Assembly (NCBI RefSeq): GCF_000024465.1
Contig: NC_014010.1
Coordinates: 62,001 to 126,000 of the forward strand
DNA: 64,000 nucleotides
Direction: 5' to 3'
From: Candidatus Puniceispirillum marinum IMCC1322
GTDB lineage: Bacteria > Pseudomonadota > Alphaproteobacteria > Puniceispirillales > Puniceispirillaceae
This document shows positions 37,577-42,935 of the stretch, in pieces. The translations under genes were made by a program, and so were the position numbers. Position 1 is the stretch's first letter. Each line of letters opens with the position of its first letter. The notes under the pieces are model-generated. The model did no database searches, was not told the DNA's origin, and saw nothing but the letters and a program-made list of their open reading frames with translations.

Positions 37577-38674
37577 GTGCGATTAAAGATTTTCTTATTA
37601 ATTTCGGTGGGTGCCATTCTGGCCGCCTTTGCGCTTGGTTGGGTATTCCTATCTGACGATAATATCACGGCGGTAGAGCCGCAAAGTGCGGAAGTTCTGG
37701 ACATACCCAAACCAGAAAAGACAGCCCCTGAACAAGACACGGCCGCACCATCACAAGAGACGACACCAACTAGCGATAGTGAAGATCAAAAGACCAACGA
37801 TTCAGCAAGCGTGACTGATGATAAAACCACGCTGGAAATAGATATAGCGCGGGTAAAGCCTGATGGCGCGGCTGTATTTGCTGGCAAGGCAGCGCCGAAT
37901 GCAAAAATCCGTGTGTTTGAACAAGATATTCTGCTGGGTGAGACGGTGGCTGATGAAAATGGCGAGTGGGTTGTCGTACTTGAGCGCCCGCTGGCACCGG
38001 GACAGCATCTGGTGATGATCGGCATGGAAACCGAAGATGGCCAGAGTGAGCTGGCGGATATAACGCTTGCCATTGAAATTGACGATTCTGAGTCTGTGCA
38101 GCCTTTGGTGGCATTATTGCCGCAAACCGAAACCGATATGCCGAAATTGTTACAGGCACCTGAGACTGAGGCAGAAACACAGGCTGAAGTTAGCAGCCCA
38201 GAAAATGATGCCGCCATGCCGCTTGTGGCGCCGCGTTCGATTGTATGGCTTGATCAGGAGCGCATCTCGATTGCAGGTATGTCACGCGGTGGCGTGCGTC
38301 TATTGGTTAGCCTTGAGGATCAGAAATTTGCCGATGTAGCTGTGTCTGATCAGGCGGGGCAGGACGATCATGAATGGCAGGTATCCGGCGCCGTTGATAT
38401 GACCAAAGCGGGCTTTGAGATGATGTTCAATCTGCTTGATGAAAACAGCCAATCTGTTGCTACCTACAGGTTACCCCTTGTCACCAGTGATCTTCAAAAA
38501 GGTCTGGATGGAAGCGATCTGGTTATTGTGCAAACGGGTGATGCCTTGTGGCGTATTGCCTATCGCCGATATGGCGAGGGTGTACGCTATGTCGATATAG
38601 TGCGCCAGAATGCGGCAGCAATTAATGACCCGGATCTCATTTTTCCTAATCAGGTGTTTGCAGTTCCCGAATAA
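37577..38674 (+). CDS. Membrane-anchored LysM protein
   Basis: 365 residues: an N-terminal signal anchor (residues 1-25), an acidic, Pro/Thr-rich linker, an Ig-like beta domain around residues 95-170 (GAAVFAGKAAPNAKIRVFEQD), a second beta-rich region (about 215-300), and a C-terminal LysM-like domain starting at VIVQTGDALWRIAYRRYGEG (about 314-363). LysM binds peptidoglycan, so it probably sits in the periplasm tethered to the inner membrane. It starts with GTG 37577 and has no clear ribosome-binding site. Its context (LOG, lipid genes) says little about its role. Confidence 0.82.
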   Translation: MRLKIFLLISVGAILAAFALGWVFLSDDNITAVEPQSAEVLDIPKPEKTAPEQDTAAPSQETTPTSDSEDQKTNDSASVTDDKTTLEIDIARVKPDGAAVFAGKAAPNAKIRVFEQDILLGETVADENGEWVVVLERPLAPGQHLVMIGMETEDGQSELADITLAIEIDDSESVQPLVALLPQTETDMPKLLQAPETEAETQAEVSSPENDAAMPLVAPRSIVWLDQERISIAGMSRGGVRLLVSLEDQKFADVAVSDQAGQDDHEWQVSGAVDMTKAGFEMMFNLLDENSQSVATYRLPLVTSDLQKGLDGSDLVIVQTGDALWRIAYRRYGEGVRYVDIVRQNAAAINDPDLIFPNQVFAVPE

Positions 38675-38725: not shown

Positions 38726-39553
38726 ATGGATGCAGCTGATCTATGGCAAACAGGCAAGGTGATGATGGCTAACGACTCTGCAACTGGATTGATGGCATCA
38801 GGGCGAGGTATCTTTGGCCGTATTGCCGATGATGGATGGATGGTTGTGGCTGTGGCTGGTGGTGTGACCATCGTGCTGAGCCTGATTTATCTGCCGCTAG
38901 GTACCTTTGCGCTGGGCCTCACATTGTGGTTTGCCCATATCATGCGGATGCCCGAACGCCAGCGTCCAGATAATGACGCAGCCATTCTTGCCCCTGCTGA
39001 TGGCGTGATTGTCGATATTTCTGATGCGCGCTATCCGTCGCCATCTTTGCCGCAGGATGATTTATCGAATACGGCCGAAAAGGGGCTACGTGTGACAATA
39101 CGGACATCTCTGGCGGATATGCAGTGGCAATGTAACCCTGTCAGTGGCCGTGTGCTGGATAATCTGCTGATCCCCGGGCAAAGAAAACATCTTGGTGGTA
39201 CCGATTGTTTTGCTTATAAGCCTGCCTTTGACAAGGATGTGCTGGCGGCAATCAGAGCTGGCAATGAACGTCGTGAAGTTCGGTTTTTATCAGATAACAA
39301 CAGGCATGTTACGCTTGTGCAATTGGCCACAGCCAGCGCACGCAAGCTTGTATGTCGCCTACCAGAAGGCAAGCATATCAAAGCAGGTGACAGTTTTGGC
39401 ATGTCACATCTGGCAGGTTTGATTGATCTGTTTGTGCCGTCGGATCATGATGCGGCTATCGCCATCGGGCAACATTGTGTGGCTGGCGAGACGATCCTGG
39501 CGCTGCCTGCAACAAAGGCGCAGACAAAATCTGTTTCAATAACTGATGTTTGA
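38726..39553 (+). CDS. Phosphatidylserine decarboxylase-like protein, catalytic residues lost
   Basis: 275 residues aligned by eye to phosphatidylserine decarboxylase: a hydrophobic hairpin near 40-72, PADG at about 90 (the aspartate position), PVSGRV near 140, and the C-terminal barrel. The proenzyme self-cleavage site of real Psd (Gly-Ser in F-G-S-R-x-D) here reads LAGLID (about residues 228-234), so the serine that becomes the pyruvoyl group is absent. The NVHVNR-type histidine block reads ADMQWQCN, so the His is absent too. It overlaps the following CDP-alcohol phosphatidyltransferase by 8 bp. Probably a non-catalytic or re-purposed homologue. Confidence 0.7.
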   Translation: MDAADLWQTGKVMMANDSATGLMASGRGIFGRIADDGWMVVAVAGGVTIVLSLIYLPLGTFALGLTLWFAHIMRMPERQRPDNDAAILAPADGVIVDISDARYPSPSLPQDDLSNTAEKGLRVTIRTSLADMQWQCNPVSGRVLDNLLIPGQRKHLGGTDCFAYKPAFDKDVLAAIRAGNERREVRFLSDNNRHVTLVQLATASARKLVCRLPEGKHIKAGDSFGMSHLAGLIDLFVPSDHDAAIAIGQHCVAGETILALPATKAQTKSVSITDV

Positions 39554-40154
39554 CGCGAAGCTTCGTCCGGTTGTTGACACCATGCTCAAGCCGACTGGCC
39601 AGCACCTTGCCAGATGGGGCGTCACCGCAAATCAGGTGACTGTTTTTGGTGGCTTCATGGGTCTGGCGGCGGCAGTCAGCATTGCATTCGATGCCTTGCT
39701 GATCGGGTTGGGCTTTATTCTGGTCAACCGACTTGCTGACGGTCTTGATGGGGCTGTGGCGCGGGCGTCGGGTGCCAGTGATTTTGGCGGCTATCTGGAT
39801 ATTGTTTTTGATTTTATTTTCTATAGTTCGATTCCGTTTGCTTTTGCGCTGAACGATCCGGCGAACGGCCTGGCTGCATGTTTCCTGATTTTTAGCTTTA
39901 TTGGTACGGCGACCAGCTTTTTGGCTTTTGCTATCATTGCTGCCAAGCGCGGCATAGTGACGGAGTCTCGTGGCAAAAAACAATTCTATTATCTTGGTGG
40001 CTTGACCGAAGGTGCCGAGACCATCATTCTCTTATGTCTGATGACACTAATGCCATCATATTTCACGATGTTGGCAGTGGGTTTTGGTGTCTTATGCTGG
40101 ATCACAACTGCGATACGTATTGGCGATGCGTTCCGGATGTTTTCATCTGATTAG
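39546..40154 (+). CDS. CDP-alcohol phosphatidyltransferase family protein
   Basis: 202-residue integral membrane enzyme, about five to six membrane segments. The CDP-binding motif DG-x2-AR-x7-G-x3-D-x3-D spans roughly residues 66-87 (DGAVARASG then GGYLDIVFD), so all acidic positions are present. It joins an alcohol head group to CDP-diacylglycerol (PssA, PgsA or Pcs type), but I cannot name the alcohol; the preceding Psd-like gene overlaps it by 8 bp, which recalls the pssA-psd pair, though that partner looks inactive. Confidence 0.82.
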   Translation: MFDAKLRPVVDTMLKPTGQHLARWGVTANQVTVFGGFMGLAAAVSIAFDALLIGLGFILVNRLADGLDGAVARASGASDFGGYLDIVFDFIFYSSIPFAFALNDPANGLAACFLIFSFIGTATSFLAFAIIAAKRGIVTESRGKKQFYYLGGLTEGAETIILLCLMTLMPSYFTMLAVGFGVLCWITTAIRIGDAFRMFSSD

Positions 40155-40183
40155 GCGCGAAGATAGATAACAGGCGGTAGGTG

Positions 40184-42496
40184 ATGAAATTTGAAATAGG
40201 TCAAGGGCTGACGCGCATAGAAGATCACCGGCTTGTAACTGGTGCTGGGGTCTATACCGATGATGTCAAGGCTGGCGAAGGGTTGCGCGTGGGCTTTCTG
40301 CGCGCGCCGTTTGCCCATGCAAAATTACTATCGCTTGATGTCAGTGCCGCAGCAGACGCCCCCGGGGTAGTGCTGGTGGCCACACAGGCGGACCTTGATG
40401 CCGATAACATTGGTGAAATTGCTTGTAAGAATGTCGTTGTTAATAGTGATAACAATCCGATGCCTATGGTTACCAAGCCCCCAATGGTTCGGGATATTAA
40501 CCGCTATGCTGGTGATATTGTGGCAATGGTTGTGGCGGATAGCCAGATGCATGCCGATAATGCACTTGATCTGATCGAGGTTGATTTCGACCCGCTGGAC
40601 GCTGTTACCGATGTCTATGCTGCGGTGGCCGAAGGCGCGCCCCAATTATATTCAGAATATCCGTCAAATATCGCCTTTGACTGGCAGAAAGGTGATCCGG
40701 CCGCCACAAAGGATAGTTTTGCCACCGCCAAGCAGGATGGGCACAAAATTGTCGAGGTGGATGTCATCAATGGCCGGGTTATTGTCAATTCGGTTGAGAC
40801 ACGGCCCATTATCGCGGCACCTGGTGATGATCCCGATACGCTTTTGATATGGTGTGGGACGCAAGGTGCGCGGTCTATTTCGACGCAGATTGCCGATGCA
40901 CTGAACATGCCCCATGATGCGGTTCGTGTTCTGACACATGATGTTGGCGGCAGTTTTGGTTTCAAGATTTTTCTGCATCCAGAACAGGTGCTGGTCAGTT
41001 GGGCGGCGCGCACGCTTGGTAGTTTGGTGCGCTGGCAACAGCCACGTTCTGATGGATTTCTCTCGGATATACAAGGTCGGGATACGCGAACCAAAGCGCG
41101 TGCGGTGATTGATGATAGTGGGCGTATTCTGGCCTATGAAGCCGATGTGCATGCCAATATGGGTGCGTGGTTATCTAATTTTTCAACGGCTATTCCGACA
41201 ATTTCAGCCAATTCAGCCTTGACAGGTACCTATGATATTCCGGTGGCAAGCTTGCGCGTGCGCGGGGTTGTGACAAATACCCCCGCTATTGATGCCTATC
41301 GTGGTGCAGGACGCCCAGAGCTGATTTACGCATTGGAACGGTTGCTAGATCAGATCGCGTTTGAAACCGGTATCAGCCGCGTTGATGTAAGGCGGCGTAA
41401 TCTTATCAAGGCAGATCAGATGCCCTATCCCATGGCGGTTGGCATCACCATTGATAGTGGAGATATGCCAGCCTTGTTTGAAACCGCATTGCAGCGTGCC
41501 GACTGGGACGGGTTCGCCGCCCGACGTGAGGCTGCGCATGTCAAGGGGCTGTATCGCGGTATCGGTCTTGGTATGTATCTTGAGAAAAGCGGTGATGGCA
41601 GTGATGGCGGTGTGCATATCAGCTTTGCGGCCAATGGGTATATGACGGTGTTGGCATCACAACAATGTAACGGTCAGGGGCACCGGATGACGCTGACCCA
41701 AATTCTGTCTGACAAGCTGGGCTATGATGCTGATAAAATCACTGTCCAGCAAGGTGACTCGGCGACCATGCCCGAAGGCACAACAGGCGGGGCAAGGATG
41801 ACAGCATTGATTGGTTCGGCTGCTGCCAAAGCGTCAGCCAGCATTATCGAAATGGCGCGCCCACAGGCGGCGCAAAAGCTGGATTGTGCTCTGGATGATC
41901 TGGCTTTTGACGATGGCATCTTTGCCGATAAAGCCAGTAACCGGTCAATCACGCTTGCGGATCTGGTCATCGCGCTTGCCGATGAAAAAACCCCGCATAT
42001 GTTTGATATTCGCCAGCCTTATGCCAGTGATGGCCCCAGCTATCCTTATGGTTGTCATATTGCCGAGGTCGAGATTGATCCGGCAACCTGTAAAGTGAAG
42101 CTTGACCGTTTTACCTGTGTCAATGATTTTGGCGTCGTTATCAATCCGGTCATGCTGGAAGGTCAGATACAAGGCGGCATCGTTCAGGGCATAGGGCAGG
42201 CACTTTATGAGCATGTTGTCTATGACGATCAGGGACAGCTTCTGGCTGGATCATTGATGGATTATACATTGCCGCGTGCTGATCATATTCCGATGCTGGA
42301 TATCACTATGCGCAATACGCCGTGTCAGAATAACGCTCTTGGGGTAAAGGGAGCTGGGCAAGCTGGCGCAATCGGGGCACCACATGCGGTCATTTCGGCA
42401 GTTTGCAATGCGCTGTCGATCCCCCATATAGATATGCCCGCTACACCGTCATCAATCTGGCAGGTGATGCAGACGCGAAATATTACCGCCGCATAA
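40184..42496 (+). CDS. CoxL form-II-like molybdenum hydroxylase large subunit
   Basis: 770-residue molybdopterin-binding subunit of the xanthine dehydrogenase/aerobic CO dehydrogenase family. RIEDHRLVTGAGVYTDD at the N-terminus, GGSFGFK near 265 and the active-site motif AYRGAGR near 372 place it with form II (BMS/OMP-type) rather than form I CO dehydrogenase (AYxCSFR). Near residue 723 the usual catalytic Glu (VKGxGE) is Gln here (VKGAGQAGAIG). No medium FAD subunit or small [2Fe-2S] subunit adjoins it, so its partners must be elsewhere. The start is ATG 40184 after GGTAG. Substrate unknown. Confidence 0.85.
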   Translation: MKFEIGQGLTRIEDHRLVTGAGVYTDDVKAGEGLRVGFLRAPFAHAKLLSLDVSAAADAPGVVLVATQADLDADNIGEIACKNVVVNSDNNPMPMVTKPPMVRDINRYAGDIVAMVVADSQMHADNALDLIEVDFDPLDAVTDVYAAVAEGAPQLYSEYPSNIAFDWQKGDPAATKDSFATAKQDGHKIVEVDVINGRVIVNSVETRPIIAAPGDDPDTLLIWCGTQGARSISTQIADALNMPHDAVRVLTHDVGGSFGFKIFLHPEQVLVSWAARTLGSLVRWQQPRSDGFLSDIQGRDTRTKARAVIDDSGRILAYEADVHANMGAWLSNFSTAIPTISANSALTGTYDIPVASLRVRGVVTNTPAIDAYRGAGRPELIYALERLLDQIAFETGISRVDVRRRNLIKADQMPYPMAVGITIDSGDMPALFETALQRADWDGFAARREAAHVKGLYRGIGLGMYLEKSGDGSDGGVHISFAANGYMTVLASQQCNGQGHRMTLTQILSDKLGYDADKITVQQGDSATMPEGTTGGARMTALIGSAAAKASASIIEMARPQAAQKLDCALDDLAFDDGIFADKASNRSITLADLVIALADEKTPHMFDIRQPYASDGPSYPYGCHIAEVEIDPATCKVKLDRFTCVNDFGVVINPVMLEGQIQGGIVQGIGQALYEHVVYDDQGQLLAGSLMDYTLPRADHIPMLDITMRNTPCQNNALGVKGAGQAGAIGAPHAVISAVCNALSIPHIDMPATPSSIWQVMQTRNITAA

Positions 42497-42524: not shown

Positions 42525-42935
42525 ATGTCTGACAAAATCATCAAAACCGATGCCGAATGGCGCGATATGCTGACCGATGAGCAATATCACATCACCCGCG
42601 AACATGGCACCGAGCGCGCCTTTACCGGGGCGCTATGCGATAATCATGCAGATGGCACTTATCAGTGTATTTGCTGTGGGGCGGATCTGTTTGATAGCGA
42701 TACGAAATTCGAATCAGGCAGTGGCTGGCCCAGCTTTTACCAGCCTGCCGAAAATGGTGCGGTTGGTGAGACCGAGGATCGTAGTTTATTCATGCGACGT
42801 ACCGAAGTGCATTGTAACCGCTGTGATGCGCATCTAGGCCATGTGTTTCCCGATGGGCCACAACCAACAGGCTTGCGCTATTGTATCAATTCGGCATCGC
42901 TGGATTTTGTCGATAAAGACGCAGAGAGTGAATAA
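42525..42935 (+). CDS. msrB: Peptide-methionine (R)-S-oxide reductase
   Basis: 136-residue MsrB, repairing methionine-R-sulfoxide. Two zinc-binding CxxC motifs (CICC about residue 43, CNRC about 92), GSGWPSF near 65 and the catalytic cysteine in RYCINSASL near 122 are all present. 28 bp separate it from the CoxL-like gene upstream, so it may share that transcript, with a GGAG site before its ATG. Confidence 0.95.

What the first reader, a model, noticed from the sequence alone, without database searches (positions are those of the whole stretch)
38726..40154. Phosphatidylserine decarboxylase homologue that lost its self-cleavage serine, coupled to a CDP-alcohol phosphatidyltransferase
The Gly-Ser of the F-G-S-R-x-D proenzyme site reads LAGLID, and the conserved His region (NVHVNR type) reads ADMQWQCN, while the PADG Asp and the overall fold remain. 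A protein that cannot make the pyruvoyl group cannot decarboxylate. It overlaps a CDP-alcohol phosphatidyltransferase by 8 bp, so a structural, regulatory or new enzymatic role in head-group synthesis is possible.
Basis: partly seen in the sequence, partly recalled or inferred. Interest (0 to 1): 0.58.

Follow-up and report, generated by a model that had tools for sequence, protein, structure and literature searches.

The report
Dead decarboxylase paired with lipid synthase
A marine bacterium and its relatives keep a copy of a lipid-making enzyme that has lost its self-activating site, next to a second lipid synthase of unknown product, which suggests it now serves as that synthase's helper rather than as an enzyme.

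Summary
ORF 38726-39553 is a genuine phosphatidylserine decarboxylase (PSD) homologue (PF02666, E 6.8e-21) without the Gly-Ser self-cleavage site or the catalytic His; the PADG Asp remains. The genome has an intact psd beside a pssA-like gene elsewhere. The loss is old and the protein is under selection: of 61 family genomes, the 55 with the neighbouring CDP-alcohol phosphatidyltransferase (CAP) all carry this protein ('PsdX') directly upstream, 0 of 55 with Gly-Ser; dN/dS is 0.08-0.21 in the 20 closest pairs. The unit is lysM-psdX-CAP; 21 sister-family loci have the CAP without psdX. The CAP does not look like a PS synthase: it is 45% identical to E. coli YnjF. In one genus (10 genomes) neither pssA nor a psd with an intact site was found, yet psdX-CAP stays, so a role in PS/PE synthesis is unlikely. 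In 22 of 22 psd-pssA-CAP operons of other Alphaproteobacteria the psd site is intact; where psd touches CAP without pssA, 4 of 5 lack it. Best explanation (0.6): an uncleaved, membrane-anchored pseudo-decarboxylase acting as partner or headgroup-binding subunit of the YnjF-type CAP. The partnership is inferred, not shown.

The parts
38726..39553 (+). psdX: PSD-fold protein without self-cleavage site (275 aa as called; true start perhaps at 38762 or 38765)
38834..38944 (+). predicted long helix, taken as membrane segment (residues 37-73)
   Evidence: helix H37-73; the membrane location is inferred from its hydrophobic letters
38993..39004 (+). PADG (residues 90-93), Asp92 = conserved Asp of the PSD triad
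39116..39133 (+). DMQWQC (residues 131-136) in place of DVHVNR: catalytic His replaced by Gln133
39410..39421 (+). LAGL (residues 229-232) in place of FGSR: Gly-Ser replaced by Ala230-Gly231
39546..40154 (+). YnjF-type CDP-alcohol phosphatidyltransferase (202 aa), signature DGLDGAVAR...GGYLDIVFD intact
39546..39553 (+). 8-bp overlap psdX/CAP
37577..38674 (+). first gene of the unit: protein with Big_6 and LysM domains; a LysM-pattern gene is upstream of psdX in 52 of 54 family loci

Best explanation
PsdX is a pseudo-decarboxylase: a PSD-fold domain on a membrane helix that stays uncleaved, makes no pyruvoyl group and does not decarboxylate. It most likely entered between lysM and CAP in the ancestor of its family (Puniceispirillaceae, the SAR116 clade) and has been kept with the CAP ever since. 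It most likely works as an accessory subunit of the YnjF-type CAP, binding it and/or the head group of its substrate or product through the old active-site pocket and so stabilising, steering or regulating it. Shown by sequence: the site loss, its spread through the family, purifying selection, strict pairing, intact CAP signature, persistence where no PS/PE pathway was found. Inferred: absence of cleavage, membrane anchoring, physical contact with the CAP and the lipid-binding role.
For: 0 of 55 family orthologues have Gly-Ser, and none of the 55 has both a Ser and a His at the two columns. Co-occurrence: 55 of 61 family genomes have the CAP, all 55 with psdX directly upstream; in the other 6 (51-77% complete) neither was found. 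dN/dS 0.076-0.213 in the 20 closest pairs. Order lysM-psdX-CAP in 52 of 54 (the other 2 lack upstream DNA). CAP signature residues are invariant in 28 of 28 but for one near-invariant Arg. Genus g7: no PssA-type match and no intact-site psd found in 10 of 10 genomes (6 at least 90% complete), pair kept. In the core genera the pocket is re-specialised rather than drifting: Gln133, Gln135, Gly231, Arg177, Arg183, Glu184, Arg211 in 27-28 of 28, absent from 5 canonical sequences. In the class, intact site in 22 of 22 psd-pssA-CAP operons, missing in 4 of 5 direct psd-CAP pairs. The model has the PSD fold (Foldseek 9.5e-6 to PsiD, 2.6e-3 to E. coli PSD, prob 1.00).
Against: No direct evidence of a complex; no fusion of the two was noticed, though none was searched for. 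The pocket substitutions fixed in the core genera are not conserved in g2, g6, g7, g8, g10, g11, so one shared ligand is uncertain. Three g8 sequences have a Ser at the site column, without the Gly or the His, and 9 of 55 have a His without the Ser. Site-less PSDs also occur away from this CAP: g7 PsdY, G106, G242, G385. One of the five direct psd-CAP pairs (G134) keeps the intact site. In 56 of 83 CAP loci outside the family no psd was seen in the DNA fetched and E. coli ynjF has none beside it, so the CAP does not generally need a PSD-like neighbour.
Confidence: 0.6

Rival explanations
1. PsdX is a new enzyme: the pocket lost pyruvoyl chemistry but gained another reaction on the CAP's product (for example hydrolysis or transfer at the head group).
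For: In the core genera polar residues specific to PsdX (Gln133, Gln135, Arg177, Arg183, Glu184, Arg211) are fixed in 27-28 of 28; the genes are adjacent in all 55.
Against: Across 51 family rows the 25 columns conserved at 85% or more are mostly Gly, Pro, Ala and hydrophobic; of the five polar ones, Asp92, Arg182, Arg206 and Thr256 are shared with canonical PSD and only Glu184 is new. No conserved new catalytic set.
Confidence: 0.15
2. PsdX serves the LysM-domain protein or another envelope process, not the CAP; the gene order is only a shared operon.
For: A LysM-pattern gene is the other constant neighbour (52 of 54); the fold is also that of EIIA-Glc (Z 14.2) and, at Z about 8-9, of M23/LytM-type domains, some of which are envelope regulators.
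Against: 21 sister-family loci have the CAP without psdX, 20 of them with lysM; in the five psd-CAP pairs outside the order no LysM pattern was seen in the DNA fetched.
Confidence: 0.12
3. PsdX still decarboxylates through an unusual mechanism, giving PE in genomes that lost canonical psd.
For: Some E. coli mutants next to the Ser (G253A, T255A) or at the His still cleave slowly (PMC7952604).
Against: No Ser, Thr or Cys at residues 228-234 of the window protein; S254A of E. coli stays uncleaved and H144 mutants make no PE. The window genome has an intact psd, and in g7 no pssA was found either.
Confidence: 0.04
4. psdX is a decaying gene carried along with its neighbours.
For: It evolves faster than the CAP (40-46% against 57-63% identity to the window copy); two of the 55 copies have broken frames (L024, L034), in draft genomes.
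Against: dN/dS 0.076-0.213; present in 55 of 55 genomes with CAP; 41 invariant columns in 25 core sequences.
Confidence: 0.03

Closest known systems
Bacterial phosphatidylserine decarboxylase (Psd, EC 4.1.1.65; PF02666), e.g. E. coli PSD 7cnx/6l06
   Same: Homologous domain, PSD fold, conserved Asp, Asn-Glu-Arg and Ala-Arg motifs, N-terminal hydrophobic segment
   Different: No Gly-Ser, no catalytic His, so no pyruvoyl group expected; below all 11 NCBIfam cut-offs, three of which the canonical paralogue passes
YnjF-type CDP-alcohol phosphatidyltransferase (E. coli b1758; PF01066)
   Same: CAP 45% identical over its whole length, signature intact, same leading weak NCBIfam hits
   Different: No PSD is annotated within the 12 kb around E. 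coli ynjF; here the CAP follows lysM and psdX
EIIA-Glc (e.g. 1f3g, 3our)
   Same: Highest Z among the aligned solved chains (14.2, 127 residues, rmsd 2.9); an uncleaved binding module. That it works alike is my analogy
   Different: No sequence-level relation shown; EIIA-Glc is soluble and phosphorylated on His (recalled); PsdX has an N-terminal hydrophobic helix
Canonical psd-pssA-CAP operon of other Alphaproteobacteria
   Same: Psd gene upstream of the same CAP family
   Different: There pssA lies between and the psd site is intact in 22 of 22

Membership tests
Phosphatidylserine decarboxylase (active, pyruvoyl-dependent) | PF02666 domain above curated cut-off | tested here: met
   75.3 bits against 22
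Phosphatidylserine decarboxylase (active, pyruvoyl-dependent) | Gly-Ser self-cleavage site | tested here: not met
   Ala-Gly at 230-231; 0 of 55 orthologues have Gly-Ser
Phosphatidylserine decarboxylase (active, pyruvoyl-dependent) | Catalytic His (E. coli H144) | tested here: not met
   Gln133; 9 of 55 family members keep a His, none of them with the Ser
Phosphatidylserine decarboxylase (active, pyruvoyl-dependent) | Triad Asp (PADG) | tested here: met
   Asp92; 50 of the 53 rows with the column filled
Phosphatidylserine decarboxylase (active, pyruvoyl-dependent) | NCBIfam equivalog cut-off | tested here: not met
   below all 11, e.g. 104.4 against 252 and 111.3 against 315; control: canonical paralogue passes 3 of 11, e.g. 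276.4 against 252
Phosphatidylserine decarboxylase (active, pyruvoyl-dependent) | PSD fold | tested here: met
   Foldseek prob 1.00 to PsiD and E. coli PSD; Z 11.0, 142 residues, rmsd 2.7 to 7cnx; a prediction, pLDDT 79.6
Phosphatidylserine decarboxylase (active, pyruvoyl-dependent) | Self-cleavage and decarboxylation in vitro | not testable with these tools
   needs bench work
YnjF-type CDP-alcohol phosphatidyltransferase | D..DG..AR.......G...D...D signature | tested here: met
   DGLDGAVARASGASDFGGYLDIVFD; signature invariant but for one near-invariant Arg in 28 sequences
YnjF-type CDP-alcohol phosphatidyltransferase | Full-length homology to YnjF | tested here: met
   45% identity over 202 aligned positions
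PssA | NCBIfam TIGR00473 score | tested here: not met
   23.9 against 107 bits; note that the pssA-like gene beside canonical psd also misses the cut-off (92.7) though pssA is its best hit
PI-phosphate synthase / archaetidylinositol-phosphate synthase | NCBIfam equivalog cut-off | tested here: not met
   44.8 against 170 and 70.7 against 180 bits; E. coli YnjF scores alike, 41.9 and 63.2
EIIA-Glc | Beta-domain fold | tested here: met
   Z 14.2, 127 residues, rmsd 2.9; similarity of fold only
EIIA-Glc | Phosphorylatable active-site His | not tested
   not examined

The most novel reading that the evidence does not exclude
Loss of the pyruvoyl site turns PSD into a lipid-synthase subunit: in several alphaproteobacterial lineages (the SAR116 family, family f50, family f167), PSD genes that come to lie directly against a YnjF-type CAP lose the site independently and become head-group-binding partners that set what phospholipid the CAP makes, including in bacteria that no longer make PE.
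Probability: 0.25. Interest if true: 0.8.

Novelty: new variant of a known kind. Interest (0 to 1): 0.58.

Why it matters
PSDs are textbook self-processing enzymes; a conserved, selected, site-less branch tied to one lipid synthase would be a pseudoenzyme in phospholipid synthesis. It also gives a handle on the YnjF-type CAP, a family shared by E. coli and SAR116 for which the held library has no paper under that name. And it flags marine bacteria in which the PS/PE pathway was not found.

Tried and rejected
Rejected: misalignment or sequencing error (55 of 55 orthologues agree); recent decay; regulator of canonical PSD/PssA (pair kept in g7 where neither was found); CAP as PssA, PIPS or AIPS (the cut-offs alone are weak evidence, since the gene beside canonical psd also misses the pssA cut-off).

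Led nowhere: a profile of 25 core PsdX rows found no solved chain by sequence at E 0.01, although the fold search did. Paper searches: inactive PSD (0 papers; 3; 23, 15 listed; 31, 10 listed), YnjF (0), PSD with SAR116 (0), PSD with EIIA (2), Puniceispirillum with phospholipid (3), PSD with CAP in Alphaproteobacteria (1). No title or abstract start in these listings describes this pair; the papers themselves were not opened except passages and one section of PMC7952604 and passages of PMC11813361 (they speak of fatty acids, and the head-group names searched do not occur). The library is open-access PMC only.

Limits: the tree (69 rows) joins all 31 PsdX rows apart from canonical PSDs at 91/75, below its own confidence mark, and warns of long branches; the number of independent losses is unsure. 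One search's match list was cut, so PF02666 outliers of the class were picked from its genome table: 6 weak genomes and 9 with several matches. Of the 6 weak ones the site was read in G106, G242 and G385; G129, G207 and G364 were not resolved. dN/dS was computed on pairs above 72% identity and the 20 closest are given. L024, L034 and L046 (broken frames or contig end) were dropped but counted. flags an in-frame TGA in the matches L024, L025 and L031; the last two seem to be the natural stop. LysM genes were recognised by a letter pattern, checked by Pfam in the window and in L147.

Full report
What is there. The finding spans two overlapping genes, 38726-39553 (PSD-like, here called PsdX) and 39546-40154 (a CDP-alcohol phosphatidyltransferase, CAP), both on the + strand, overlapping by 8 bp. 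PsdX matches PF02666 at 6.8e-21 and no other Pfam family above its cut-off. Aligned with the genome's canonical PSD at G000:C1:1234019-1234537, its site reads HLAGLID for RFGSRVD and ADMQWQCNP for FDVHVNRAP, with PADG kept. In E. coli PSD self-cleavage uses D90/D142-H144-S254; S254A stays uncleaved and H144 mutants make no PE (PMC7952604: passages and section 8 read).

The genome has the normal pathway elsewhere. PF02666 gives two matches in the 2,753,527-base genome: the canonical one (143 bits) and PsdX (76 bits). The canonical one passes 3 of the 11 NCBIfam cut-offs of the models it hits; PsdX passes none of its 11. PF01066 gives three matches: one that passes the pgsA cut-off, one of 268 aa beside canonical psd whose best hit is pssA (92.7 bits, below the cut-off of 107), and the CAP of the window.

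The family. With the PsdX protein, 31 of 61 genomes of the same family (the window's own included) give close matches (genera g1, g4, g5, g9; E below 1e-29); the other genera carry more divergent copies found beside the CAP. The CAP profile matches 55 of 61 family genomes; the 6 misses are 51-77% complete and show no PsdX either. I read PsdX beside the CAP in all 55: 54 and the last. None has Gly-Ser. Three (all g8) have a Ser at that column without Gly or His; 9 of 55 have a His (six g2, one g11, two g9) without the Ser; Asp is kept in 50 of the 53 rows with the column filled. The commonest letter at the Ser column is Gly. A separate scan of named genomes gave 26 loci, with titles such as SAR116 cluster bacterium and Candidatus Puniceispirillum sp., all 26 with the CAP next door; these probably overlap the unnamed set and are not counted again.

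Selection. In the 20 closest PsdX pairs dN/dS is 0.076-0.213, in the 20 closest CAP pairs 0.049-0.328. PsdX is a working protein. In 28 core rows the old active site carries its own fixed residues: Gln133 for His, Gln135 for Asn, Gly231 for Ser, with Arg177, Arg183, Glu184 and Arg211, each in 27-28 of 28 and absent at these positions from five canonical sequences. Outside the core these vary, which counts against one common ligand.

Gene order. lysM-psdX-CAP holds in 52 of 54 family loci; the other two lack upstream DNA. In the sister families f2, f175 and f176 I read 21 of 54 CAP-bearing genomes: none has a psd in the stretch fetched, and in 20 of 21 a LysM-pattern gene lies directly before the CAP; the remaining one has no room upstream. 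The simplest reading is that psdX entered between lysM and CAP in the family's ancestor; loss in the sisters is not excluded.

The rest of the class. The CAP profile matches 87 of 385 class genomes; I read the locus in all 83 outside the family. In 22 the order is psd-pssA-CAP and the psd has FGSR and a His of the HVNR/HINR type in 22 of 22 (L074 moved by hand from 'direct'). In 5 the psd lies directly before the CAP without pssA: f50 (three genomes, FGG), f167 (one, MVN) and f76 (one, intact FGSQ with His). In 56 no psd was seen, but 27 of the 83 loci had only 1.5 kb of flank. In the three f50 genomes and the f167 genome no other PF02666 match reached E 0.01. So site loss goes with direct contact to the CAP, though the three f50 cases are one lineage and the tree cannot count origins safely. 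Against exclusivity, site-less PSDs without this CAP beside them also exist (G106, G242, G385).

Independence from PE. In genus g7 (10 genomes, 6 at least 90% complete, one of these 7% contaminated) PF01066 gives at most two matches per genome and none of the PssA type (the list was cut near 34 bits, far below PssA-type scores), and PF02666 gives only matches of about 29 bits or less. PsdX was read in all 10, and in 7 a second site-less protein, PsdY (FGG, no His). In 5 of these 7 PsdY shares its stretch with a Glu_synthase-family gene (Pfam-checked in L041), as the canonical psd-pssA-fur locus does in g6 (L047), so PsdY may be what is left of canonical psd. psdX-CAP is retained. The pair is therefore unlikely to serve PS or PE synthesis; draft genomes mean that absence is probable, not proven.

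The CAP. Its best NCBIfam hit, archaetidylinositol-phosphate synthase, is at 70.7 bits against a cut-off of 180; its profile finds solved chains labelled CDP-diacylglycerol--inositol 3-phosphatidyltransferase (6h53) at 6.4e-8 and AF2299 at 1.2e-7. It is 45% identical over its length to E. coli YnjF, which shows the same leading weak hits. No paper in the held library contains the word YnjF. I recall that E. coli does not make inositol lipids, so an inositol acceptor is unlikely for the whole family; this is recall, not a test.

Structure. The model (pLDDT 79.6, pTM 0.69) shows one long N-terminal helix and a beta domain. Foldseek's top eight hits are chains of three decarboxylases: PsiD (9.5e-6), E. 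coli PSD (2.6e-3) and an arginine decarboxylase, all at probability 1.00. VIA-align puts EIIA-Glc first (Z 14.2, 127 residues, rmsd 2.9) and E. coli PSD at Z 11.0 (142 residues, rmsd 2.7); part of that order may come from solved PSDs being cut into two chains. The CAP model is a helical bundle (pLDDT 85).

Mechanism. Shown by sequence: site lost, loss spread through the family, protein selected, pair strict, CAP signature intact, pair kept where no PE pathway was found. Inferred: PsdX stays uncleaved, sits on the membrane by its helix, and works with the CAP as a binding or regulatory subunit, in the way EIIA-Glc works by binding partners (recalled). Probability 0.6. A new enzyme activity (0.15) and service to the LysM protein (0.12) are the main rivals.

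Novelty. PSD, CAP and pseudoenzymes are known kinds. No title or abstract start listed describes a conserved site-less PSD paired with a YnjF-type CAP; the papers were not read through. I rate it a new variant of a known kind.

Noticed in passing
L039, L041, L050, L052, L088, L091, L093 (genus g7): A second site-less PSD (PsdY, FGG loop, no His), in 5 of these 7 loci with a Glu_synthase-family gene as at the canonical psd locus of g6, in genomes where no PssA-type gene was found: these bacteria seem to have lost the PS/PE pathway but kept the PSD fold.
   Followed up: partly
G242:C4:9467-9955 (L246, L258): A 3.7-Mb alphaproteobacterial genome (100% complete) whose only PF02666 match at E 0.01 is site-less (RRLGGWCD, no HVNR) and lies by an ABC transporter, with no YnjF-type CAP in L246.
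   Followed up: partly
G385:C2:145178-146276 (L244, L256): Two site-less PSD-like genes in tandem (loops FTG and LGG) in a 0.8-Mb genome.
   Followed up: no
G106:C179:5065-5556 (L242): PSD-like protein that keeps DVHVLR but reads FGGE at the cleavage site; no YnjF-type CAP within 1.5 kb.
   Followed up: no
L167 (G134): Sole PF02666 match of a 67%-complete genome, directly before a YnjF-type CAP and still with FGS and His: a possible intermediate state.
   Followed up: partly
G515, G442, G446: Members of sister families with the CAP but no PF02666 match at E 0.01: possible further losses of PE synthesis (G442 and G446 are 86% and 83% complete).
   Followed up: no
window 40181-42496: Molybdopterin-binding xanthine/CO-dehydrogenase-type large subunit right after the CAP, a similar frame also after it in L261 (by eye); MsrB (SelR) follows at 42525.
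   Followed up: no
window 38726-38765: A Shine-Dalgarno-like AAGG before Met13/Met14 suggests the called PsdX start is 12-13 residues too early.
   Followed up: no
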